Assembly: GCF_000003605.2 (NCBI RefSeq)
Contig: NW_003155258.1
Coordinates: forward strand, 115,463-153,562
Direction of reading: 5' to 3'
Length of the DNA stretch: 38,100 bases
DNA from: Saccoglossus kowalevskii
Lineage: Eukaryota; Hemichordata; Enteropneusta; Harrimaniidae
A program made the position numbers and the translations under genes. The notes beneath the pieces were generated by a model. That model ran no database searches. It had not been told where the DNA came from and worked only from the letters and a program-made list of their open reading frames with translations. Below, piece after piece: positions 1 to 36,972 of the stretch; position 1 is the stretch's first letter; every line of letters starts with the position of its first letter.

Positions 1-914
1 GAACACAAAAAGTTGGTTGCTCCAACATCATCAATGTTGGTGTTGAAAACCCAAGTTTGTTGCTTCAACATCATCAATCTTGGTGTAGAACACAAAAAGT
101 TGGTTTCTTCAACATCATTAATGTTGGTGTAGAACACCACAAGTTGGCTGCTTCAACATCATCAATGTTGTTTAGAACACTAGAAGTTGGTTGCTTCAAC
201 ATCATCAATGTGGGTGTAGAGCACCACAAGTTGGTTGCATCAATATCATCACTGTTGGTGTAGAGCACTACAAGTTGGTTGCTTCAGCATCATCAATGTT
301 GGTGTAGAACACCACATTTTGGTTGCTTCAACATCATTAATGTTGTTAAGAACACCAAAAGTTGGTTGCTTCAACATCATCAATGTTGGTGTAGAACACA
401 ACAAGTTGGTTACTTCAACATCATCAATGTTGGTGTAGAGCACTACAAGTTGGTTGCTTCAACATCATCAATCTGGGTGTGAAGCACCACAAGTTGGTTG
501 CTTCAACATCATCAATGTTGGTGTAGTACACCATAAGTTGGTTGCTTCAACATCATCAATGTGGGTGTAGAGCACCACAAGTTGGTTGCTTCAACATCAT
601 CACTGTTTTTTAGAACACTAGAAGTTGGTTGCTTCATCATCATCAATGTTGGTGTAGAGCACCACAAGTTGGTTGCTTCAACATCATCAATGTTGGTGTA
701 GAACACCACAAGTTAGTTGCTTCAACATCATCATTGTTGTTAAGAGCACCTCAAGTTGGTTGCTTCAACATCATCAATGTTGGTGTAGAAAACCCAAGTT
801 GGTTGTTCCAACATCATCAGTATTGGTGTAAAAATCCAAATTGGTTGCTTCAACATCATCAATGTTGTTAAGAACACCACGAGTTGGTTGCTTCAACATC
901 ATCAATGTTGGTTA
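1..914. repeat. 44-bp minisatellite array (about 20 units)
   Basis: The motif GTTGGTTGCTTCAACATCATC recurs with a spacing of 43-44 bp; its first seven starts are at about 12, 55, 99, 143, 186, 230 and 274. The array ends near 914 and runs off the left edge. Units differ by a few substitutions and by 1-nt indels, for example where the GGTGTAGAACACC segment becomes GTTTAGAACACT. Each unit contains two perfect short inverted repeats, CAACAT/ATGTTG with a 5-nt loop and GGTGT/ACACC with a 3-nt loop. The period is not a multiple of three, so the open frames on both strands here are a by-product of a stop-poor repeat and not genes. Confidence 0.95.
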
Positions 915-13689: not shown

Positions 13690-14341
13690 AATTACCACCT
13701 GGGCTCGGACAGCCCGGGGTGTGGCTTTCCGCGAAGCATAATCTCTTGATAGCAGAGCTTTCCATTGAAACGATCATATTCTAGTTTTTACAACCGAAAA
13801 AGACCATATATTTTGATATTTTACAAAAATTTAGAAGCTCAACACAATTCTTTAGCCGTCAAGTCTTTCTATAGTAGCATGTTGGCATTATTATTCGTGA
13901 ATATCGCACCTAAATTTGAGGTACTATGTCAGGAATCGCAACTTCGAACACTTCTAACAACCTTGATCGATTGGCCCGTTCTATTCGTCATGTGTTTTAG
14001 AATGATCGATGTTTTTTTTTCATTTATTGAATATCTTAAACCTAGTTGTAGTTTGTGGATCTGTTTATCGTGCTTGTTTTATTATATTATATACAGTATA
14101 CGTATCATATTTAGGCATTCACTTTTTCCGTTCATAGTGTTTTCAAGCATATATTTTTAATGTATTTTACAATGCCGGTGACATCATGTCTCTAAGAATA
14201 ACATCCTGCAGTATCAATTCTTTAGCACTGCCAGGAATTGAGTAGGGAGACCTTTTATTGCCCCGATGAGAATTTATTTACTGGCGACATTTGTTTTTGA
14301 TTTACTGAACTTACTCAAAGCGTTGTCAGCGGGTTTACCCG
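13690..14341. other. Interior between left repeat and protease, no gag seen
   Basis: It starts with a short GGGCT/AGCCC hairpin near 13710. An AT-rich hydrophobic open frame at 13765-14160 has no similarity to gag or any family I know and looks like chance. Confidence 0.4.
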
Positions 14342-14344
14342 TTG

Positions 14345-15173
14345 TCACAGTGTAAGATCACAGATGCAAGTAGGCATCCATGTTTACAGGGACGAGATAG
14401 AGTTGAGTTGAAATGTGGCCATGAGCTGCCAATTATTAGTGTTGCTAGTGTCACACCAGCTAATAGGATGGTGAGTGGTATGCCTGTTGTTCAAGGCTTT
14501 ATTTGCAGTACTGAGGTAGAGGTCCTGCGTGATAGTGGGTGTAGTTCGGTTGTAGTACGTAGAGAAGGAGAGTCGTACCTGTGTGATGATGGATGGTACA
14601 TGTCGGAAAGCCCCAGTAGCTAGACTATATATAGATACACCCTACTATGTTGGTGAGGTCGGGGCATTGTGTATGAGGACCCCAGTTATTGTTGGTAATA
14701 TTAGTGGAGTTAGGAAGCCCAAGGATCCTGATATTGATTGGAAGCTAGGTGTAGCTCATGATGTAGGGCATGGTGTGGTTAGTTCGCCCTCGGGTGGTAA
14801 ACATAGTAGTCCTTCGAGTGATGGGACTAGTCTGCCCTCTGGTGGTGAAGGTTGTTGTCCTTCGGGTATTGTGACTAGTGTTCCCTCAGGTAATGAAGGT
14901 TAAACATCTACTAGTAGTCAGGCTAGTGTGCCCTATATGGATGACGGTTGTTCTCCAGGTGTTGAGATAAGAGAGCCTTCAGTTAGTGGTTGTGAACCCT
15001 CCATTGATTTCAGTCAGGATGTTGTACAGATGGAACAGACTAGGGCTCAGCAGTTAGCTGAAAAAAGCCATGTGAATAGATATGTACATTTACTTTTCGG
15101 TCTTGTGGATATATTTTTCGCTCGGATGGCGGTAATATTTTCTTTTCTGTTTGCACTTTGTGATTGCTGTGCT
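14345..15173 (+). pseudogene. Ty3/gypsy aspartic-protease (pol N-terminal) fragment
   Basis: The first frame gives MPVVQGFICS then VLRDSGCSSVVVRRE. DSG (Asp codon at 14531) is the catalytic triad motif of retropepsins, and the surrounding VLRD-G-VVVRR is typical of Ty3/gypsy proteases. Around 14580 the homology shifts frame and continues as DGTCRKAPVARLYIDTPYY, then ALCMRTPV and VGNISGVRKPKDPD, the expected C-terminal half of that protease. A stop at 14901-14903 interrupts the second frame, which then continues to MEQTRAQQLAEK, resembling the TRAQ motif that follows the protease in such polyproteins. The reverse transcriptase that should come next is missing. A Ser/Pro/Gly-rich degenerate repeat (about 14783-14900) occupies the linker. 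With a frameshift and a stop, the copy is inactive. The enzyme would normally cleave the Gag-Pol polyprotein. Confidence 0.75.
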
Positions 15174-15267
15174 TAAGTTAGTGTACGCTCAGCTTCGTGG
15201 CTAATTGTCAAAGGTGTGAACAGTTAATTTACCCACAACAAGCCCTGAGACAATAGACTGCCAAGCG

Positions 15268-25403: not shown

Positions 25404-28400
25404 GTGAGTGAGTTAGATGTATGTACATACCTTGCACCGCTTTAACACTGATCTATTTATTATGTATATTGTTTTGTTTTCTGATTATGTGGATGAGGTG
25501 ACTTGTAATGAGACCAGACTCCATTTAAACTGGCTTTACGAGTAATGATGACCCTTCATTTCTGATCAAAATGACGTTGTTGTAAATTACAATTGTAAAA
25601 AATAGGAACTAATTTGACTTTTCAGATGTTTTAGATTACAATCCTAATAACTTTTTATCCTAGGAAAATATATTTTCAAGCCAAAGTAATCTTTGAACAT
25701 CAAGATTCATAATTGATTGATGCTATGCTAATGTTTTTGGTAGTCTAAACAAACACATACTGTTACAACTTAGACTTTGGTCCGCCATATGTTTGTCTTA
25801 CGACTACCAGGTAATCTATGGGAACGATCTTGTTCTAGGCCGTCGTCTGTCGGTCGTTTTGGTTGGTCGCGTCCAAACACATGTAATTCCAGGCGCAGCT
25901 GTGAGGCTTTCATGTAGCTAAAACGTTTAAAAATTTAAATTTACCAATGGTTGTGAGATGTGCTATTTCTGTTAATTCACTATATTCGTAGTTGGAATGA
26001 ATAAACCATTAAATCACATCATTAATCACATCAAAAATTGTATACTGTTTTGATTTGTGAATTTGGTCAAAACAAATTAACGGTCGGACATACAACATCG
26101 GTATTAGAGATGATATAATAGAGAGAGATGAGTGTGCAATAGTTGATTGAAAACTTGTCAATGAATAAAAAACATATAAATAAACATAGATATTAAATGA
26201 GTTTATCACAATTCTGAGAATTGGAACTTTTGACAAGCATATTCAAAACTAGCATTGGGACGTTCTAAACATGTACTCGTACTGTTTTGTCAATGTATCT
26301 CCTCACATATGACTTGAGTAAATAACATTCTTGACTTACTTAAATGAAATAGTTCATGACTAACTTTCGCCTACTTGTCTGGACACGCTTAGCATACACA
26401 AGTAATTGATACTGTGCTTGCGTTTTGTTTAGCGTCTTGTCTAATTTCGGGGATATCGCTTCCAAACTCTATATCTATCATCTTGTACCTTGTTCAAAAT
26501 TAGGATGTATTTGAGCCTGTTGAAATAGATAAGACAACGAATGCATAACTTTTGGCAGGCGTTCGAGAACAGTTCACGCAGCACCTTTGGCACACATGAC
26601 AATCATTCTTCACGCAGTATGTTTATCTTATTTTGTGTTTCAATATAGTGTTTTTTTTTATATTTCACCGTATTACATATGGAACATTTCAATGGCGATT
26701 AAAAGTGTATAGAAATGTAAATTAAAACCTTTCTTTATGACACACACTATAGACGCATTATATATGCTCCAAATTATTTTTCCTATTTTAAAGCGTAGGA
26801 TGACATTGTGCATACTGATTTACTTTGCCTGTGTGCCCGTATAAGTATACATTTATCCAAACATGTTTGTTGATGAGTTTTAACATTAACGTTATCTCGT
26901 ATTAATTTCCAAGTTTGTAAGTTATAAATTTGTTTTTCATATTACAGATATGGAACTATCAACCCGAACTGAATCAGACTCCAAAGATGTAAGTACTTAA
27001 TGTTGTATAATTGAGCGTATCTGCAATTACGATGCGATGCCCATGGTATATTTATATATGTTTAATTATTATGACACCTTCGACAAATGGTAACCCATGT
27101 TTCATAGAAAAATACAAATAATGAAAATGTTAAATAAGGAGAAGCAGCATACAAATGGACAATGGATATTCACAAAATTGAATAACAACAATACAATGGT
27201 GTTCGAATAGCAAACATTGACAAATAAAATTTACTATTCACTTATTTTGTGTAGGTGATAACTACTCAATTTTAGAAAAAAACAATTGAATCATAATTAT
27301 TTTGAATTTGCCAAACACTTTTTAATGATACTCTCAGATAAATAGGGACTCGGATGACATGAGTGAAGTGACAGACAACAATAATGGTTCCGAGTCGTCC
27401 ACTGACCTGCATGTACAAGAATGTTCTCAAAAAGTATGTACAGATAATGTACTTTCATACTACAACCAAATTATATATTCAGTATATTATGTACTTAAGT
27501 CTGTGTATAGCACAATATTATCAATGGTAACAAATTAATTGTATTCCCTTTTATTTTTCTTAGTTTAGCAGACAAACCGTTTTCGGGGAATAGTGATATT
27601 GCCCGTATGTAGCTGAAAAATATCAGGAAATAATGTATAATTATTTTATTCAATTTAATGGTACCTGTTGCCGTAATGTTTTATTCACAGTCATATTCAG
27701 ATTTGGACACAGATGATGTACCCACCTTCGAGGAACTGTACAAAAATGTGTTTGGCTCTGAAACAATCCATCAGAAAGTAAGTGTTCGTGTTCAATCACC
27801 GTAAATACACTGCAGCTAGGTACAGTTACGAAAATTATTTGCTTGCTCTATCTCACCCATGACCTTTTCTAAATTACTTCTTACCAATTAGACCAAGATC
27901 GTTCTCAATTTACCTCGAATAGTTGGTAAAATCCCTCCTAAAACATAAATATTCACCCAAAACAAGACCTACATGTGAATAACAGGGTTTGAGCAGTCAA
28001 TCGATGTGACTGTTAAGTTTATATATTACATCAATCAATCTCTCAAAACTAGGAAACATGCACAGAAACGTGCACATTACTGAAGGGAGGAAGTTGCTGG
28101 ACATGAAATTGTCTGTGACCAATGTTTTGACGTCCAGTAAATGTACATGACTAGTAAGCATCTAAAGTTGAATTTATTTCATACCTGACTGTGTGCTTAA
28201 CTGATTATTTTAAATACATGCAAATATAGTTATCACAGCAATGCAATTTTATAATAGAGCCCTGACATTTTCATTTTCATCATGTAAGTGAAAGTATTAC
28301 ATTGCAGTGTTGTTACAATAAATGTCTTCATTTGAGAATTAGATATTTGTCAAATGAGAAATAAGATTCAAGCATTTACTTTGTTTCTTTGGTTCTAACT

Positions 28401-31400
28401 CTAATAAACACTTTTCATGATAATCATAGACAAAAGCTGATTCGAATGACATAATTAAACGGACAGAAAATACTAACGCTCCTGCACAGTCCACTGACCT
28501 GCCAGAAGGATATATCCAAACGGTATGTACAAATGATATAATAAAACAAATGAAATTGTATTTTCAAATTAATATGTTGTCCCCGCCCCAATTGTGTGTT
28601 AGAAAAAAGATATACAACAACTTTGGAGTTAATTTCTCACTCAGAAAATATTAGTTTTAATGGCAAATGAAAATGTGTATGATCAAAGTGTATAAATTAG
28701 TCTAATAATGAAATATATATAACAAAATGCCACAAACTGTCAAACTATGCTCGGTTATCATCTCTTGCCGAATATTTAAATTTTACTCATAGAAGTCCAT
28801 TATCAAATATTTGATAGTTTAGCCCCCACTCGGTCTCAAGCACATTTAGCTCGCTCACTCTTTAAAGCTAACCTTATAAGTAACTTCACGAGATGCCCTC
28901 TTCGCAATACAGTGCAGTACCGTCTGCAAGTATAGAATAGACATGTTCAAAAATTTATATAAATGGTGTAGATCAGACACTACTCGCGTTACATCCGATT
29001 CAAGGCTACCATTTCTCTCTCAGCAGAGCGGCATTTATGCAGAAATATAAAAAACTAAAAATAAGTCAAAAAATAAAGTTCTAACACTTGCAAGTGGGGA
29101 AATGCTAAATACATAGTAAACTTTTGTCCAGAACACATGCCCCAACTAGGAACTCAATGCAATAGTGAAAAGCATTATAAAGGAGTCCTCACTAAAGACC
29201 ATTGGCACTGTAACTGCAACAAGACTGTGACTGTAACAATACTGTGCCCCTGTAACATGACTAAATTTTTCTCTGTCTTTCTGTTGTCTCTCATGCATAG
29301 ATCGACCACACACTTGCTGACCATGTATCCGAGGTGGTTCACACATTTAGCCTTCTGTAGTATGTCTGTTTGATAATGACTTATTCACCAGAATCTTGTA
29401 ATAAGCACGACATCTGCACACATACCAGACGGAAATGTATATAATTAGCCACGCTCTTGCATGATGCATATGCATGTCATTGGTGTTCTAAAGTAACAAT
29501 ATGTGTTTCCAAATGCTAATAGAAACAGGTATTGCAGCTCTGTTTACCATGACATGACACACCATCATCTGATCTCTTCGTGCAAAACCATTATTTCCTC
29601 CTGATCCTCCTTGTTGACAAATTCGATATTGTAGTCTTGCCTGACTGTCATAAAAAGAACATTCAACCATAATCAAACGTGGTGTTGCACGTAACATGTC
29701 GCCCATGCCCACCAAAGTCAATTTACCAATGCTTAGCTGATGCACCTGCACCTGGTGATCGGCTTTGCCCTTGTTCACAACCACTACAGCGAACTCATCC
29801 GCACCATGAAATCCTTTAAATTACCCACTGTCACTCTGCCTGCTTGAGATATATATATATTGCTGAAGAGATTGATTCATGTATGATTTGTTTGTTTCAC
29901 AGCTTCATATATACTTGGTCACAAATAATATAGAGGCTGCTAAACTCTTGTTATCAGACCAGTTTGATTTAAACAAGTTTAAGGAGCTGCGCCAAAAAAC
30001 ATTGTATCATAAAGTAAGTTCATAATGTGAAACGGCACACATTTACATGAATTCTTGTCGTTTCGAAGAGAGAGTGGGATATTGCTATAAAGGTGTGATG
30101 GCAAAATTACAATCATCATTTTGTGTGATAGAGAACTAGCAAAATGCAGAAGCAGACAAAGTAGGTCGTGTATTATCTTTATTCATCATTGAAATATATA
30201 ATCACATAAATAGCATGACTTGAGTAGAGTTTATTTTATAAGCACAAGGGCTCTTTATTCAAGTTACCTCGTCATGGGGTCGACTCACATCATCATTATA
30301 TATCTATGATTCAAATACCAGGTTGTCAAACAAGTATAATAGTCTCTGTTGTATGATTTTTGTGTAAATAAAAAGGGCAAAATTTTATTTTTTTAGCTCT
30401 GCTGTTTTCGACTACTTCTTAAAAACTACAAGCCTGATTTAATACTTTGTGTATATGTACCTTGGGTGTTTGTTCATTTAATTGTGATATCTTCAATTAT
30501 ACAGAAAGGTACTACTACAGGTGATGATATGCTTGTTTTATACCTCGTGTATTTTATCCTTCCCTATAAAAAATAAAAACTGTCTCGTAATTTCATAGCA
30601 TGTAGAAGTATTTTGGGTAAATCATTTCTCCTTCTGACAGCTAGTTATAACATAGGTTTACCCTGTTGATTTAACAGATCATGATTTCAAATTAATAATT
30701 TTGTAAAATATCCGGATTGTGACAGGTAAAAATTACCAAAGTAATGACGCTAATGATGTTAAAAGGGAGAAACTCTCCCAGTGTTGTAAATGAAACAAAA
30801 CCACACTTGTATCTGAAACTGAAATAGCTGTTGGTGCTATGTACAGTTTCATTACAGTTCCAGGAATATTGTAGATTGGGTAGGTGTTACTGTTTCTCTC
30901 CGTAAAAGTCCACGCCCTTGGTTAAAAAGAGTAATGTGAACTAAATTTATCTGTTTTTTTTTATTCCGTTGTATCGATTGCCGTGATACCTTTCATCATA
31001 GCTGTATTCAATTGTGTTATCGGATGACGTTAACTGTTTAAAACAGCTGTTAATTAAAGGGTTCGGTATAGACAAATTGGAAGAATTTGAAGATGACGTA
31101 AGTACACACACTTTCAAGAGTCAGGCAAATCAAAACTGCATATTCAGATTTTTACAAAAAGATATATCATTCTAAAAGCTTATTTTTGAACGACGTATTG
31201 CTGTTTATCATCCAGAAAAACTAATATTGAGCATTTCCAAGATTTTCAGTTAATGAACATATTCATTCGAAATAATTGTGTAATTGTTAGTTATAGTGTT
31301 TTGAGGTATCAACCATAATATGTTCGTTTCTGTTAGTTATCAGAGTGCCATTGAATAAGCTATGTTGATGTGTTGTGTTGGATTACTCCTTTTGTTGTAG

Positions 31401-34400
31401 ATATGCGCAAACCTGAAGACCTCTCTCCTCACAAATGATGTGAAAAATGTAGAACAGTGCTTAACAGACCAATTTGATTTGAATGAGTTTAAAAAGTCAT
31501 GCTTGTATTACAAAGTAAGTAAATATACAGCGGCATCATAAAATACCAAACAGGACTATTATCTAAACTACATGTTATATTCTAGATCTGCAAAACAAAT
31601 GATTTCAGAAAATTGTTAAATGCCTGAATTTTAGATGTGTAAATAAGTTCAACTTAAGTTAATGAATGTTCATTAAACACCAACATATTAACCCATCAGA
31701 GAAGACAATCGTCTCCAAATTGCAGGCAATGATATTTTTTTCAACATCTTACCAATCCCTACACAACGATAAGAGATCTTTTTTGCACTGAAAAACGACT
31801 GACCAGAATAGCCAAGCAAAACATAATGATGTAAATAATAGTTTATAATGCATGACAATTACTAATGTAGCAAAGTAAAAATTAAAGAATATATACCAAC
31901 CCATTTTGCGCTAATTAGTGTTGTTTTTGTTTCTTAATCACAGATACATTCGGCTTTTGTTTCAAATCATGTAGAAATTGTGAAACAGCTATTGAACGAT
32001 AATAAGTTTGACTTGAACAAGTTTTTATCAGAGCGACAATTAGTAGCATTATATGTGAAAGTAAGTACATGTGGTGCAATATGTTTGCATTGACTTCTAC
32101 AACATATTGCATATATTTCATATATTAAAAAGAAATATGTGAATAGACTGGTCACTTTTAATCTGTTTTCGTGAATGTAATTTATTCTAACTGATATTGA
32201 CAATAACATATTTATTTCCACCATCTCTGCTGTTGTTACGAATGAAATCGTTCAGTGATAGGTTGCCATCCTCAACAAATATTTTCAGAGGCCCTTTTGT
32301 ATCTATATTGTACTTAACTACACTCTTGCTGATATCAGATCGGTGGGTTTTTGTGAATTAACATAAGATACGCACCTCATATATATTGTATGAAATCAGA
32401 GTTTACATTTCATTTTGATTTTAGTAACAGTTATAATTTAATTAATTATACTTGCCAAACAAGGTGAGTGTTATACAGCTGGATATTGTATTGGAAGATA
32501 ATCGCTAAATTTATGATTGTTCATTGAAAGTACATCATCATATCTGAATGTGAAATTAAATGATTTGACTAACTAACATTTGCTAGTAACGCTAATTAAT
32601 GTTTCGCCGTTTATTAATTGTGCTATTTTTTTCACTAATGACTACCGGCATGCAATGCTGGTTATGATCAAATTACGTTTTGGGTGCACGCTAAAGACAG
32701 CTAACAGTTCGTGTTGACGCAAAGGCAACATTAAATTAGTCGCTCTATACATTTTAAAGAAAGTGTTCTGATTATACAGGAAACAACACAAGTGTAATAT
32801 GCAATGTGTTTTGTACTGATTTAATTATATGGTCTAACTTCGATCTATAAATTAAAGACATGTTTCATTAATCTGCAACACTACTTAATGCTTAAAAATC
32901 AATCATTGAATGAGAACCTAATCATTTGGCTTTTTAATTGATTTTCAGTTTTTGATCTAATATCAATCCAGGCATATAGTGTGTATTGAAGAGGGAGACT
33001 AATTTTATGTTGTCACGTGTACAGTTTTACAGCTAGCAATCAAGCACACACACACAAGAACACAAGTTATAAAACTAATTACGTAATCACCATATTCAAA
33101 CAATGTTTATAAAATTTGAAGGGATTTATTATGATTTTGGAATATTATGATAACCATTCAGATAATGAAACACTTCAATGATTTATAATTTCGATTTCCT
33201 GGCAAACTTGTCAAGTTATATATATATCCACTTGTCAATGCTTTACACTTGCAGTTACCTCTGTGAAAATAATGATCTTTAATTATTTCTTAAAGATGCC
33301 GTCTTCATCCCTTCACCGTTTTGACACTAATAATATATTCCATGCTATGTACAAGGTGAGAATTGTAGCAGCGTTGAAACTGTAGTGACTTCTACTAATG
33401 TATGTGTTGCATGTACTTTACGAGTCTAGTCTAAAGACACGTATTTCTTATTTACATGCATATATCATTACTTTACAAAGCACCTGTTCATGGTAACCAA
33501 TCCTACAATTGGCATATGCAATAAACTATTCAGTAACCTGTTGTATTTCAATTTAGAAGCTATTAACATATCTTTTATGTTTGTTAGGCTCTGGTTTTCA
33601 ATACTGATGATATTAATAAACATGTAAAATTTAAATACGTTCGGCGTATTATAAAAAACATGATGCTGGGTGGAAACCAAGTTCTGTATCAGAACAAGAA
33701 ATATGGCAAGTATACAGTAGAAATGCACTTATTTACCTGGGCTGTGTTAATGAATAGACAAGACATGGCAAATTTGATTTGGGAACAAATAAAGAACGGG
33801 AACATAGGTGAGTTGCATTTTGTGGTTGCGAAGAGCAAGTGTAATAATAATGCAAAACGTTGAGCGTCATTTCCTAGTTTGAAGGTATTTTAATAATAAC
33901 CTGTCACCTGAGCGTAAATTTATCGCAATTATGAATAGCCCTTGATTGCTTTAATTACTACTATTGTAAATATCAAATGAAACATACAACTGTCTAGCTG
34001 GTTTATGTATTAGTTTGACGAAGAAGTTTCTTAATACTTGGGTCCAGGCATTCAGAAGCAGAAACTGAACGATTAGAAAAACACCCGGCACTCAAAAAGC
34101 TATATATTGATTAAAATGGACAGTTTGTCATTTTAAATATTATACTTGAACGTGTATGTATTGTAGCACGGTAACATGGAATTTATCTTAGATAATGGAT
34201 ATATTTATTGGCAAATACTAATTTCACGATGTACTTGCGGTTGAGCACAGTGAAAAACATGATATTATGCAGTGATGATGAGTCTCATTCACCATACATG
34301 AGCCTTGATTAAACACTAATGGGAATATAAATTAAATTCGCATTATATATCTATATATATATATTATAGATGACCAAGGAGGGTACATAATTATGTAATT

Positions 34401-36972
34401 TTACACATTTTTCCTTTTTCTAGGTGCAGCATTATATGGTGGCAGTATCCTGAAAGGACTGGCAAAATATGCTGGGGACAAATATATGCTGGATTTGGAA
34501 GAGAATTTAGTTCGAAATGCGCGGTGAGCTGGATATTAATTATATTCATGTGTTTTCTCTCTTTAGACGTAAATAAATAGAAAAACAATCGAGTACATCT
34601 TTCCGATGCAATCACCTTAATGTATAAAGTGAACCAATCAGAGCAGGATAATGAATATTTGCATCCATTTGGGCTATGAAGTTTGCTTTCAAACATCTAT
34701 GCCATCTTTCAAGAGTCATTCCATATTGTGTGTGAATGTGCAATACCGCACGGTTATGTCGCTCGCTCGTCATATCATTTCGGGCTGACGCATGTGGCAT
34801 AATGGACGTTATTTTAGGAATTATTACGTTATTTTACGTATACCCGGTAATTGTAATTTCAAGAGCACCAAGGAAATGCACGGTTTATGGTGTGGGACTA
34901 TCTATTGTTGTATTGTTCAGAATTGAACATAGTTGAAATAAAACCGTCTTAATGCAGTGGCACAAGAACGGTTGAAGGAGCTGTTGTGATATGTGAATAT
35001 TTCAAAACATTCCCATACGAAAATGTTGATTTCACTGCTATTGGTTACCCTGGGTTCAATGCAGAATGACCACCTTAAAATAACATAGAATTATTGCACT
35101 AAGCAGCAGAAATTTTCCAAAACAAAAACAATAACGTTTTTTTTACCTTGATGAGACAACATATTCATTATAACACAAAAAATGCAACGACATGTGAGAG
35201 CTTTAATGAAAGCTAATTCAGTGAAAATTCATTTTGGTGGACAACATTTTTGAGGGTTGTTTTTTACAGAATGTTTGAAAAAATGGCACGTAGTGTGTTA
35301 GATATATATTACATAAAAGACCCAGAAGAAGCAGGATTGACAATTGCTCGTAAACTACCAGACTGGAATGATACAACCTGTTTATCTATTGCAAATGCTG
35401 GATGGCACATGAAATTCATGGAGCACGAATGTTGTCAAATGAGATTACAGAAAGCGTGGAATGGACACCTCCACATTGAAACTACATGGCAGTGGGTTCA
35501 AGTAAGTGCATTGTCTGAGTATCTATGGAAATTTAAAAATGATAATATTTTACGAGCGTGGGTGTGTTTGTAATCGACGTATAATTTAAAAGTAAAAGTG
35601 AAGCCAAAAATAAATGTTAAAAATAGTAGTTTTAGTTGCTTTACGAAGTCATATTTCTATTTAATTTGAAATATAAATTTAGCTTTCGAGTTTCAAAGAT
35701 GGCATGAGCGAACATTGTTCGAACCACGTAAGTAGTTAAGCATTAATTAAAAAAGAGCCAAAGGGGCAAATGACCCCCATCCGCTTCTAAGTGGGAATAT
35801 TCCAATAACACGAGTGCATAGCTGGCGGCCTTGAAGAGTGTCACCCGTAAATCCACATATATCATCCACGGTGTCAAAGATCAATGCAGGTTTATGACCT
35901 ACTGCATAAGTTCCATCACATTTACAGCTAATTTATGTTGTACTGATGCGTGCCTGATTTAAGTAAACGGTGCTAGTAGGGCTCTGATTTTACAACAAAA
36001 TTCAACGGTGTTGATATCAAAAAGACACGATTGATCAAATGAACGTACTGATTAGTAAGATAGGAAGAGTCATTATGTTTCAATAGGGCTTTGATGTTTC
36101 TAGCATTTATCCATCTTCTAATGGCTTCTGCCAGAATATCGTCATGCTGACATTATACCCCCACTCCTAAAACTACTTAGGTGTGATTGTACTAGGTATT
36201 ACAGAAGGGCAACATAACATGCATTGTGATACGATGACCAAACTGCTACGCGGTAGCCTCTGACTGGACTTTTTTGGATTATGTATGTCGATATCTGAAA
36301 CACGCGTTTAATTAAATTTAAGAATCACAAAATAATACCATTTAAATACTCAGTGATTGAATAAAAATCCTATACAGATTTGCATTTTAATTGTGTTTAA
36401 TGTAAAATCATTAAATTGCATTTTAGACACGTTACATTTCATCACCATAATGTAATAACAACTTGAGTTCTTCAAAAAGGTCGTAATATTATCATATGAT
36501 ATTTATATTTTATTTCATTGTAGTTTTGTATTGCATTATTCATACCTTTCATATGTGCTGGAATGACGTTTTTATTCGAGATGGAAGACGGGGAGACATA
36601 TATTAGAAGTGAGGGAAAATTATGGTTAATATGTGTTTTCCCATTTAAAATGATCGGTTTTTTTATGTCGCCAGTAACAAAGTTTGGATACAATTGTGTA
36701 AGTACTCTCTCTCTCTCTCTTCTCTCTCTCTTCTCTCTCTCTTTCTCTCTTCTCTCTCTCTCTCTCTCTCTCTCCCCTAGAAGTTTAGCAGAAAATTAAC
36801 CAATATTGACAACTTAATTTAATTGTAGGTATCCTACATTATTCTGTTGGGATTGTTTACCTGGTTCGTTTTGACTGACTTAAGACCAGCAACTGAGCCT
36901 AATTCTCCCAGTACTATAGAGTATGTCGTTATCTTCTGGGTTGGAACATTAATTGTGGAAGAACTCAGACAA
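25361..36972 (+). CDS. TRPM-like (melastatin) cation channel, N-terminal 15 exons, incomplete at 3' end
   Basis: Fifteen exons join in one open frame of 576 codons, all with GT-AG introns: 25361-25403, 26948-26988, 27338-27433, 27691-27777, 28430-28522, 29903-30013, 31002-31097, 31401-31514, 31944-32060, 33296-33355, 33588-33807, 34424-34523, 35270-35501, 36524-36697 and 36829-36972. Residues 1-120 are an acidic Ser/Asn/Asp-rich leader. Residues 121-266 are four one-exon melastatin-homology (MHR) helical modules. Residues 287-470 are the last MHR region (LFTWAVLMNRQDMA, then DTTCLSIANAG and KFMEHECCQ). Residues 471-490 are the pre-S1 helix, about 518-547 are S1, and 560-576 are S2 ending in the family motif EELRQ. 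S3-S6, the pore and the TRP helix lie beyond the window. TRPM proteins are tetrameric plasma-membrane or organellar cation channels. This one lacks the MHR1/2 region in the assembled part, so it is shorter before S1 than usual. It cannot be assigned to a named TRPM subtype. Confidence 0.88.
25404..26947 (+). other. Intron 1 (1544 nt)
   Basis: It begins GTGAGT and ends ATATTACAG. No coding block was seen inside. Confidence 0.45.
26948..26988 (+). CDS. TRPM-like gene exon 2
   Basis: Acceptor TATTACAG, donor GAT|GTAAGT. Encodes (D)MELSTRTESDSKD and contains an ATG at 26950 that is an alternative start. Exit phase 0. Confidence 0.7.
27338..27433 (+). CDS. TRPM-like gene exon 3, acidic leader (duplicate of exon 5)
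   Basis: 96 nt, phase 0 to 0, acceptor ACTCTCAG, donor AAA|GTATGT. 32 residues rich in Asp, Asn and Ser, including DSDDMSEVTDNNN and SSTDL. It resembles exon 5 in protein and DNA: both share GTCCACTGACCTGC near the end and GTATGTACA at the donor. Confidence 0.75.
27691..27777 (+). CDS. TRPM-like gene exon 4
   Basis: 87 nt, phase 0 to 0, acceptor TTATTCACAG, donor AAA|GTAAGT. Encodes 29 residues including SYSDLDTDDVPTFEELYKN. It is acidic, without a recognised domain. Confidence 0.75.
28430..28522 (+). CDS. TRPM-like gene exon 5, acidic leader (duplicate of exon 3)
   Basis: 93 nt, phase 0 to 0, acceptor TAATCATAG, donor ACG|GTATGT. 31 residues including KADSNDIIKRTENTN and QSTDLPEG, aligning with exon 3. 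Confidence 0.72.
28523..29902 (+). other. Intron 5 (1380 nt)
   Basis: No additional module exon was found. An antisense 98-codon open frame lies at 29488-29784 (listed separately). Confidence 0.6.
29488..29784 (-). CDS. Hypothetical antisense frame in intron 5
   Basis: 98 codons, with coding-like segments such as HQLSIGKLTLVGMGDMLRAT and QQGGSGGNNGFARRDQMM; the frame stays open upstream of the first ATG (HGADEFAVVVNKG). I do not recognise a family. It may be a decayed mobile-element or retroposed fragment. No splice partners were seen and chance is possible. Confidence 0.2.
   Translation of the reverse strand: MVVNKGKADHQVQVHQLSIGKLTLVGMGDMLRATPRLIMVECSFYDSQARLQYRICQQGGSGGNNGFARRDQMMVCHVMVNRAAIPVSISIWKHILLL
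29903..30013 (+). CDS. TRPM-like gene exon 6, MHR module copy 1
   Basis: 111 nt, phase 0 to 0, acceptor TGTTTCACAG, donor AAA|GTAAGT. The 37 residues follow the helical MHR pattern LVTNNIEAAKLLL-DQFDLNKF-LYHK. In TRPM channels the equivalent is a segment of the type aLv.nr.efVklLle.G.nl..Flt...L.eLY. Confidence 0.85.
30014..31001 (+). other. Intron 6 (988 nt)
   Basis: No extra exon was recognised inside. Confidence 0.6.
31002..31097 (+). CDS. TRPM-like gene exon 7, diverged MHR module copy 2
   Basis: 96 nt, phase 0 to 0, acceptor TTCATCATAG, donor GAC|GTAAGT. 32 residues with LSDDVNCLKQLLIKGFGIDK, then EEFEDD. It lacks the LY-K ending of the other copies and is the most diverged. Confidence 0.75.
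31401..31514 (+). CDS. TRPM-like gene exon 8, MHR module copy 3
   Basis: 114 nt, phase 0 to 0, acceptor TTTTGTTGTAG, donor AAA|GTAAGT. LLTNDVKNVEQCLTDQFDLN followed by EFKKSCLYYK is close to copy 1; at DNA level GACCA-TTTGATTT-AA--AGTTTAA is shared. Confidence 0.85.
31944..32060 (+). CDS. TRPM-like gene exon 9, MHR module copy 4 (most canonical)
   Basis: 117 nt, phase 0 to 0, acceptor TTAATCACAG, donor AAA|GTAAGT. FVSNHVEIVKQLLNDNKFDL then NKFLSERQLVALYVK matches the TRPM consensus best, including the KFL...L..LY part. Confidence 0.88.
32061..33295 (+). other. Intron 9 (1235 nt)
   Basis: AT-rich. A splice-like block at 32425-32463 begins with a stop in the required frame and was rejected. 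A short CACACACACA tract occurs near 33045. Confidence 0.6.
33296..33355 (+). CDS. TRPM-like gene exon 10
   Basis: 60 nt, phase 0 to 0, acceptor TTTCTTAAAG, donor AAG|GTGAGA. Encodes 20 residues (MPSSSLHRFD..., ending IFHAMYK). It corresponds to the linker after the MHR module in TRPM channels. Confidence 0.65.
33588..33807 (+). CDS. TRPM-like gene exon 11, distal MHR region
   Basis: 220 nt, phase 0 to 1, acceptor TGTTTGTTAG, donor ATAG|GTGAGT. Contains FTWAVLMNRQDMANLIWEQ, which matches the TRPM motif of the type LfLWAvLlnRqemA..fWe. Confidence 0.92.
34424..34523 (+). CDS. TRPM-like gene exon 12
   Basis: 100 nt, phase 1 to 2, acceptor CTTTTTCTAG, donor CGCG|GTGAGC. Encodes AALYGGSILKGLAKYAGDKY and then EENLVRNAR, the TRPM segment of the type aALaaskiLk.la. 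Confidence 0.9.
35270..35501 (+). CDS. TRPM-like gene exon 13
   Basis: 232 nt, phase 2 to 0, acceptor TTTTTTACAG, donor CAA|GTAAGT. Contains ARKLPDWNDTTCLSIANAG, KFMEHECCQ and AWNGHL. These match the conserved TRPM sequence W..tTcL.lA......F..h...Q..l...W.G.l just before the pre-S1 helix. Confidence 0.93.
36524..36697 (+). CDS. TRPM-like gene exon 14, pre-S1 helix and start of S1
   Basis: 174 nt, phase 0 to 0, acceptor TTTCATTGTAG, donor TGT|GTAAGT. FCIALFIPFICAGMTFLFEM is the pre-S1 hydrophobic helix. GFFMSPVTKFGYNC is the entry into S1, compare FF.aPvv.F in TRPM2-type channels. Confidence 0.92.
36705..36777 (+). repeat. CT-rich microsatellite in intron 14
   Basis: 73 nt of nearly pure (CT)n with TTCT interruptions. 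It starts 7 nt into a 131-nt intron (36698-36828) and fills over half of it. Confidence 0.97.
36829..36972 (+). CDS. TRPM-like gene exon 15, S1 and S2
   Basis: 144 nt, phase 0 to 0, acceptor TTAATTGTAG, donor CAA|GTGAGT. SYIILLGLFTWFVLTDL is S1. EYVVIFWVGTLIVEELRQ is S2 with the near-invariant TRPM ending EE-RQ. The extracellular loop between them (RPATEPNSPSTI) is short, as usual. Confidence 0.95.

What the first reader, a model, noticed from the sequence alone, without database searches (positions are those of the whole stretch)
29903..32060. Four tandem one-exon copies of a melastatin-homology module
Exons 6, 7, 8 and 9 encode the same 32-39-residue pattern (LV-N-VE-VKQLL-D-FDLNKF---LY-K), each in a single phase 0-0 exon ending in Lys before GTAAGT. 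DNA similarity (GACCA-TTTGATTT-AA--AGTTTAA) shows recent exon duplication for copies 1 and 3. Ordinary TRPM channels have one such segment at this position. An expanded array would lengthen the helical arm and may change assembly or ligand gating, somewhat like ankyrin expansions in other TRP channels.
Basis: partly seen in the sequence, partly recalled or inferred. Interest (0 to 1): 0.75.

Follow-up and report, generated by a model that had tools for sequence, protein, structure and literature searches.

The report
Channel gene with multiplied helical exons
An animal TRPM-type ion channel gene carries three or four copies of a small helix-pair exon that its ordinary relatives carry once, and it seems to have lost the ligand-binding front domain that most of those relatives keep, so its sensing end may have been rebuilt by exon duplication.

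Summary
The observation largely holds. The gene (window 26950 to beyond 36972, +) is a TRPM-lineage channel. Exons 29903-30013 (m1), 31401-31514 (m3) and 31944-32060 (m4) are securely the same module; 31002-31097 (m2) is a diverged, probable fourth copy. All are phase 0-0 before GTAAGT, but m2 ends in Asp, not Lys. In the five other TRPM genes of this genome where I could read the module, it occurs once, in one phase 0-0 exon. m4 is that ordinary segment; m1-m3 are extra copies, not other TRPM segments. The duplication is not recent: a paralogue on contig C4170 has all four, under purifying selection (dN/dS 0.44). 'A longer arm' is probably half the story: no exon of the nucleotide-binding MHR1/2 (SLOG) domain was found in the 27 kb upstream, although a 2026 survey reports it in all TRPM/TRPS members. 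Most likely the modules are spliced together into an ankyrin-like helical stalk that replaces MHR1/2. Joint splicing, true loss of MHR1/2, and function are untested. New variant of a known kind.

The parts
26950..26988 (+). exon e1, probable start codon two bases after a splice acceptor (MELSTRTESDSKD); acidic leader
   Evidence: same layout in paralogue C4170
27338..27433 (+). exon e2, acidic, resembles e4; not found in C4170
27691..27777 (+). exon e3, leader (27 aligned codons to C4170, 56% aa identity)
28430..28522 (+). exon e4, acidic leader
29903..30013 (+). module copy m1, 37 aa, phase 0-0
31002..31097 (+). module copy m2, 32 aa, phase 0-0, diverged, lacks the LY-K tail, ends in Asp
   Evidence: not found by the non-circular profile
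31401..31514 (+). module copy m3, 38 aa, phase 0-0
31944..32060 (+). module copy m4, 39 aa, phase 0-0; corresponds to the single module of the other TRPM genes
   Evidence: 25.2 bits to the profile of five ordinary module exons, tree; alone only 18.2 bits to PF25508 positions 20-54, below its cut-off of 27, and a 3.7-bit alignment to TRPM2 476-532
33296..33355 (+). exon e10, linker, 20 aa, phase 0-0
33588..33807 (+). exon e11, start of MHR4 (HLFTWAVLMNRQDMANLIW)
34424..34523 (+). exon e12, MHR4
35270..35501 (+). exon e13, MHR4 (TTCLSIA..FMEHECCQ)
36524..36697 (+). exon e14, pre-S1 region
36829..36972 (+). exon e15, aligned up to TRPM2 residue 846 (S1 region); the gene must run on beyond what could be read

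Best explanation
The gene encodes a TRPM-lineage cation channel in which the exon for one helix-pair (ankyrin-like) unit of MHR3 was duplicated in tandem. The ordinary copy (m4) kept its place before MHR4; m1-m3 are extra copies (m2 strongly diverged). Because every copy is a phase 0-0 exon, each duplication adds a unit without a frameshift. The mature protein most likely contains all of them in a row: a short acidic leader, a stalk of three or four helix pairs, then MHR4 and the channel. In this gene group the stalk most likely replaces the lost MHR1/2 (SLOG) domain and the early part of MHR3, so the channel should not be gated by a nucleotide in MHR1/2 and may be gated or assembled through the stalk. 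Shown: duplicated exons, conserved splice borders, retention in a paralogue, purifying selection, TRPM membership of the C-terminal part. Inferred: joint splicing, loss (rather than distant placement) of MHR1/2, gating.
For: Borders and phases. One module per gene, in one phase 0-0 exon, in the 5 other TRPM genes in which the module was found. Profile of those five exons: m4 25.2, m1 10.1, m3 9.3, m2 0.1 bits; profile of the preceding 'WNRVDIA' exon (4 genes): at most 0.6 bits, m4 no match. Tree of 13 modules: {m1,m2,m3} split from {m4 + ordinary} with 99/98 support, on 45 columns only. Non-circular scan of the window. All four in paralogue C4170 with splice sites; dN/dS over 146 module codons 0.44 (95% bootstrap 0.25-0.78), against 0.31 (0.19-0.49) for 276 channel codons. 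The paralogue also has S2-S6 and pore exons (TRPM3, E 2.4e-40; Ion_trans 47.4 bits). Whole-genome protein search: close copies only in C4462 and C4170. No SLOG match. Two helices predicted for m4 (mean pLDDT 66). MHR1/2 is the orthosteric ligand site of TRPM2 (PMC6759353, passages).
Against: No transcript was seen. m2 is barely recognisable. P_m1 against the C1095 module gives p 0.10, and P_m3 matches the C1095 module (p 0.013) hardly better than the candidate preceding exon of C1095 (p 0.026). In the paralogue the non-circular profile finds m1 at E 0.031 and m3 at only 0.98. Absence of SLOG is by profile only: the same Pfam search also gave no hit on contig C1217, an otherwise ordinary TRPM gene, so a diverged SLOG can be missed; sequence upstream of the window and of the paralogue reads N, and the window itself has one N run of about 0.5 kb near 10.4-10.9 kb.
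Confidence: 0.7

Rival explanations
1. Alternative-exon cluster: m1-m4 are mutually exclusive or optional exons, so each channel carries one or two modules and the repertoire is made by splicing.
For: All are phase 0-0 exons of similar length, so any choice keeps the frame. Purifying selection would act on alternative exons too.
Against: Copies differ in length and in the tail (m2 lacks LY-K) and are only 22-51% identical in amino acids. Introns of 988, 303 and 429 bases (from the coordinates) give no steric reason for exclusive use. Only m4 clearly resembles the ordinary unit that precedes MHR4.
Confidence: 0.15
2. Extended arm (can hold together with joint splicing): an intact SLOG/MHR1/2 domain lies further upstream than the window, so the array is added to a complete melastatin region.
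For: e1 starts two bases after a splice acceptor, so an upstream exon exists and could be coding. The 8 kb of contig just upstream of the window read N. PF18139 also gives no hit on contig C1217.
Against: 27 kb upstream in the window without a SLOG match by Pfam or by profiles of this genome's own SLOG exons (best E 0.1, not upstream but at 35225-35275). The 'WNRVDIA' exon that precedes the module in four other genes was not found either. e1 offers an ATG at the same place in C4170.
Confidence: 0.2
3. No duplication: the four exons are four different ordinary MHR3/MHR4 helix pairs of TRPM that look alike because all are ankyrin-like.
For: TRPM MHR3 is reported to hold two divergent ankyrin repeats and MHR4 one (PMC13143021, passage); Pfam Ank hits below cut-off here.
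Against: m1 and m3 carry the motif of the ordinary module including the DLNKF/DLNEF..LY-K tail; none of 16 comparisons of window m1-m4 with the preceding exon of four ordinary genes reaches p 0.05; one of 8 comparisons with the unconfirmed preceding exon of C1095 does (P_m3, p 0.026). MHR4 is present in addition.
Confidence: 0.06
4. Decaying gene: the array is the relic of a pseudogene.
For: SLOG seems lost; N-terminal exons evolve fast (dN/dS 0.59, interval 0.29-1.41).
Against: No stop or frameshift in the window's exons as read; splice borders conserved; dN/dS of modules and channel exons below 1 in a pair with dS about 0.3; paralogue with S2-S6 and pore.
Confidence: 0.04

Closest known systems
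TRPM channels, closest solved TRPM2 (PDB 8e6t/6mix) for the window part, TRPM3 for the paralogue's S2-S6
   Same: MHR4 and pre-S1/S1 in the window; S2-S6 and pore in the paralogue; m4 sits where the MHR3 module of TRPM2 (around residues 476-532) sits, though that alignment scores only 3.7 bits
   Different: three further module copies (one of them weak); no MHR1/2 (SLOG) and no early MHR3 exon found
TRPM gene on contig C1095 of the same genome
   Same: its module is the ordinary one closest to m1/m3/m4 (26 bits), and with C2729 it is nearest in MHR4; module in one phase 0-0 exon ending LYKK|GTAAGT
   Different: one module only in the stretch read; SLOG matches present (2, at 28.6 and 26.3 bits)
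Paralogues C4170 and C4611
   Same: sister genes (100/99 and 94/95 support; C1731 was left out of that tree); C4170 has all four modules
   Different: e2 not found in C4170; C4611 shows only the end of m4 because the sequence before it reads N
TRPS (soromelastatin) and TRPM alpha/beta/beta-like/gamma (PMC13143021)
   Same: superfamily with a melastatin region and TRP channel core
   Different: the paper states MHR1/2, MHR3 and MHR4 in all members; the clade of the window gene was not assigned here
TRPA/TRPN ankyrin-repeat channels (recalled)
   Same: works like them in having a stalk of repeated helix pairs on the channel (inference)
   Different: units come from a TRPM exon, are few, and do not reach Pfam's Ank cut-offs

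Membership tests
TRPM/TRPS superfamily | MHR4 and transmembrane channel core of TRPM type | tested here: met
   window e11-e15: TRPM2 E 3e-24, PF25508 99.5 bits; paralogue S2-S6: TRPM3 E 2.4e-40, Ion_trans 47.4 bits; S2-S6 of the window gene itself not readable
TRPM/TRPS superfamily | MHR3 helix-pair module before MHR4 | tested here: met
   m4: 25.2 bits to the profile of five ordinary module exons; PF25508 alone 18.2 bits, below its cut-off
TRPM/TRPS superfamily | MHR1/2 (SLOG, PF18139) | tested here: inconclusive
   no match in the window or on C4462 or C4170, but sequence further upstream reads N and the profile also gives no hit on C1217
TRPM/TRPS superfamily | usual, not defining: a single copy of the MHR3 module | tested here: not met
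   three secure and one probable copy; one in each of 5 other genes; hence a variant within the superfamily
Ankyrin-repeat TRP channels (TRPA, TRPN) | recognisable ankyrin repeats | tested here: not met
   Ank models all below cut-off, best 16.6 bits
NUDT9-H containing TRPM2/TRPS | C-terminal NUDT9-H domain | not tested
   the C-terminus of the window gene lies beyond the readable sequence; the paralogue was not searched for it

The most novel reading that the evidence does not exclude
A small group of TRPM-lineage channels (C4462, C4170, perhaps C4611) lost the nucleotide-binding SLOG domain that a 2026 survey reports in every TRPM/TRPS member and rebuilt the N-terminus by tandem duplication of a single MHR3 helix-pair exon, giving a repeat-stalk channel that is convergent with ankyrin-repeat TRP channels and independent of MHR1/2 ligands.
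Probability: 0.5. Interest if true: 0.65.

Novelty: new variant of a known kind. Interest (0 to 1): 0.5.

Why it matters
MHR1/2 is described as the orthosteric ligand site of TRPM2 across species (PMC6759353) and as present in all TRPM/TRPS members (PMC13143021). A natural TRPM channel without it, with an exon-duplicated helical stalk in its place, would test how much of TRPM gating and assembly depends on that domain, and would show a frame-preserving route by which a non-ankyrin channel can acquire a repeat stalk.

Tried and rejected
Rejected: recent m1/m3 duplication. Rejected: the copies as different ordinary segments. Considered: leader exon e3 as a fifth, decayed module; its scores against the profile of m1, m3 and m4 are weak (W_e3 0.1, P_e3 3.7 bits), not claimed. 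Considered: a third full member, C4611; only the end of m4 and later exons can be read. Dropped rows: contigs C507 and C3161 have SLOG matches but no PF25508 match, so their modules were not read; C1731 was left out of the MHR4 tree because its MHR4 piece was incomplete; e2 and e12 were left out of dN/dS.

Papers. 'TRPM + mollusc + exon duplication' and 'TRPM + melastatin homology + exon duplication' returned no paper. 'TRPM + lack + SLOG domain' listed 5 of 5; 'TRPM + ankyrin repeat + MHR3 + tandem repeat + expansion + bivalve' listed 10 of 24; 'TRPM + lacks the N-terminal + invertebrate + MHR' listed 10 of 26; 'soromelastatin + TRPM' listed 20 of 28; 'TRPM + oyster + TRP channel + ankyrin' listed 13 of 13. 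No listed title or shown start of abstract reports such a gene; this covers open-access papers only, and most were not opened. Seen: PMC13143021 outline, abstract, 12 of 35 passages and section 26 part 1 of 2; PMC8539334 12 of 21 passages; PMC8004665 12 of 16; PMC6759353 12 of 31; PMC7555694 opened, none of the terms found.

Not done: the taxon of the genome was not established; I take it for an animal. A whole-array structure was not attempted, because the structure tool takes proteins that the DNA gives letter for letter and the array is split over exons. The single-module fold has modest confidence and was not used for a fold search. A search for PF00520 did not complete.
Full report
What is there. 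The window is G000:C4462:115463-153562 of an unnamed 572-Mb genome, which I take for an animal's; its taxon was not established. On the + strand a multi-exon gene runs from about 26950 past 36972. Exons e11-e15 match TRPM2 residues 624-846 (E 3e-24) and Pfam PF25508 'TRPM2-like domain' (99.5 bits). Before them lie a 20-residue exon (e10), the four exons of the finding (m1-m4) and four short acidic leader exons (e1-e4). All borders from e1 to e10 are phase 0.

Is the repeat real. m1 (29903-30013, 37 aa), m2 (31002-31097, 32 aa), m3 (31401-31514, 38 aa) and m4 (31944-32060, 39 aa) each follow AG and precede GTAAGT. Three end in Lys, m2 in Asp. Residue-shuffle tests of local alignments: window m1, m3 and m4 resemble each other at p 0.0005, the floor of 2000 shuffles; m2 resembles m1 at p 0.0015-0.0045, m4 at 0.0035-0.0105 and m3 at 0.016-0.021, uncorrected, and does not resemble the paralogue's m3 (p 0.28). 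A profile that contains neither m1, m2 nor m3 finds m1 (E 1.7e-4) and m3 (4e-4) right after m4 among all 2090 six-frame segments of the window; the next is 0.25, and m2 is at 8.7. Pair profiles of m1, m3 and m4 each find the other two; the m2 pair profile finds none of them. So three copies are secure and the fourth is probable.

What the module is. In five other TRPM genes of this genome (contigs C994, C1731, C2729, C1095, C1217) I read the same region: each has the module once, in one phase 0-0 exon of 44-45 residues ending just after LY. Scans of the fetched stretches, about 3 to 6 kb around each, gave no second copy at E below 0.1 (best 0.16, near the C2729 module). These five are the genes in which a PF25508 match led to the module; two more contigs with SLOG matches, C507 and C3161, gave no PF25508 match and were not read. 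In four of the five the preceding exon encodes another helix pair ('WNRVDIA'); C1095 has a candidate that I could not confirm. The window copies match the module profile (m4 25.2, m1 10.1, m3 9.3, m2 0.1 bits) and not the WNRVDIA profile (at most 0.6 bits). In a tree of 13 modules m4 goes with the ordinary ones and m1-m3 form the other side (99/98, on 45 columns). Hence m4 is the ancestral unit and m1-m3 are extra copies. Against curated references m4 is weak: alone it scores 18.2 bits to PF25508 (cut-off 27; the C1095 module itself 25.7, the C2729 module 43.4) and 3.7 bits to TRPM2 476-532. Results that fit less well: P_m1 against the C1095 module gives p 0.10, P_m3 matches the C1095 candidate preceding exon at p 0.026 and the C1095 module at 0.013, and in the paralogue the non-circular profile finds m1 at E 0.031 and m3 only at 0.98.

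Age and constraint. A paralogue on C4170 has e1, e3, e4, m1-m4 and e10-e15, with m1-m4 at 68-82% amino acid identity. Nei-Gojobori dN/dS is 0.44 (bootstrap 0.25-0.78) over 146 module codons, 0.31 (0.19-0.49) over 276 channel codons and 0.59 (0.29-1.41) over 68 leader codons; e2 and e12 were left out of these counts. Between m1 and m3 third codon positions agree at 50% and second positions at 76%, with 62% overall. A third relative, C4611, shows the end of m4 and later exons; what precedes reads N. A genome-wide protein search with m1-m4 found close matches only at C4462 and C4170 (8 of 10 rows; the other two have E 0.5 and 2.6); stretches that read N are a limit of that search.

Is it a whole channel. 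The window ends after e15, and the next 19.4 kb of the contig that I fetched read N. In the paralogue, open frames downstream of e15 give S2-S4, S5-pore and S6, which together match TRPM3 over 182 residues at E 2.4e-40 and Pfam Ion_trans at 47.4 bits. Two cysteines nine residues apart lie in the pore loop there; PMC13143021 describes two such cysteines for TRPM and TRPS (section 26, part 1 of 2).

What is missing. A whole-genome search with PF18139 (SLOG/LSDAT, i.e. MHR1/2) gave 21 matches at E up to 1, on C994, C507, C2729, C1731, C3161 and C1095, and none on C4462 or C4170. Four profiles from this genome's own SLOG exons gave nothing better than E 0.1 in the window and 0.21 in the readable part of the paralogue. 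The WNRVDIA profile gave nothing better than 0.79 in the window and nothing at E up to 1 in the paralogue. Limits: C1217, otherwise ordinary, also has no SLOG match, so the search can miss a diverged domain; upstream stretches read N; the window has an N run near 10.4-10.9 kb; e1 follows a splice acceptor. I therefore call loss of MHR1/2 likely, not shown. A 2026 survey states that all TRPM and TRPS members have MHR1/2, MHR3 and MHR4 (PMC13143021, section 26 part 1), so this group would be an exception.

How it most likely works. Each phase 0-0 exon adds one helix pair (two helices predicted for m4, mean pLDDT 66). Joined, m1-m4 would form a stalk continuous with MHR4, in the place where MHR1/2 and early MHR3 sit in other TRPM channels. 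MHR1/2 is the orthosteric ADP-ribose site of TRPM2 (PMC6759353, passages); without it the channel should not respond through that site, and the stalk may serve assembly, partner binding or mechanical coupling (inference). Surveys of scallop and oyster TRP genes, of which I saw passages (PMC8539334, PMC8004665), report TRPM gene expansion in oyster; the passages shown mention no such module array.

Verdict. New variant of a known kind, interest 0.5.

Noticed in passing
window 30405-30500: A dispersed repeat in the m1-m2 intron; the DNA search of 29903-32060 listed 38 other places matching this part at 75-84% identity, a lower bound.
   Followed up: no
window 27338-27433 and 28430-28522: Leader exons e2 and e4 resemble each other (10 of 21 residues, tblastn E 0.004), a possible further exon duplication; e2 was not found in the C4170 paralogue.
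   Followed up: partly
window 14309-15176: ORFs with a DSG motif (LRDSGCSSVVV) that look by eye like part of a retroelement protease.
   Followed up: no
window 1-912: 44-bp tandem array of about 21 copies.
   Followed up: no
window 36705-36774: A (CT)n run just after the donor of exon e14.
   Followed up: no
L054 (C4611): A third close paralogue; the end of an m4-like module directly follows a stretch that reads N.
   Followed up: partly
G000 contig C1217, L048: A divergent TRPM-like gene with the module once but no SLOG match on its contig; it may be another SLOG-poor member or simply diverged.
   Followed up: no
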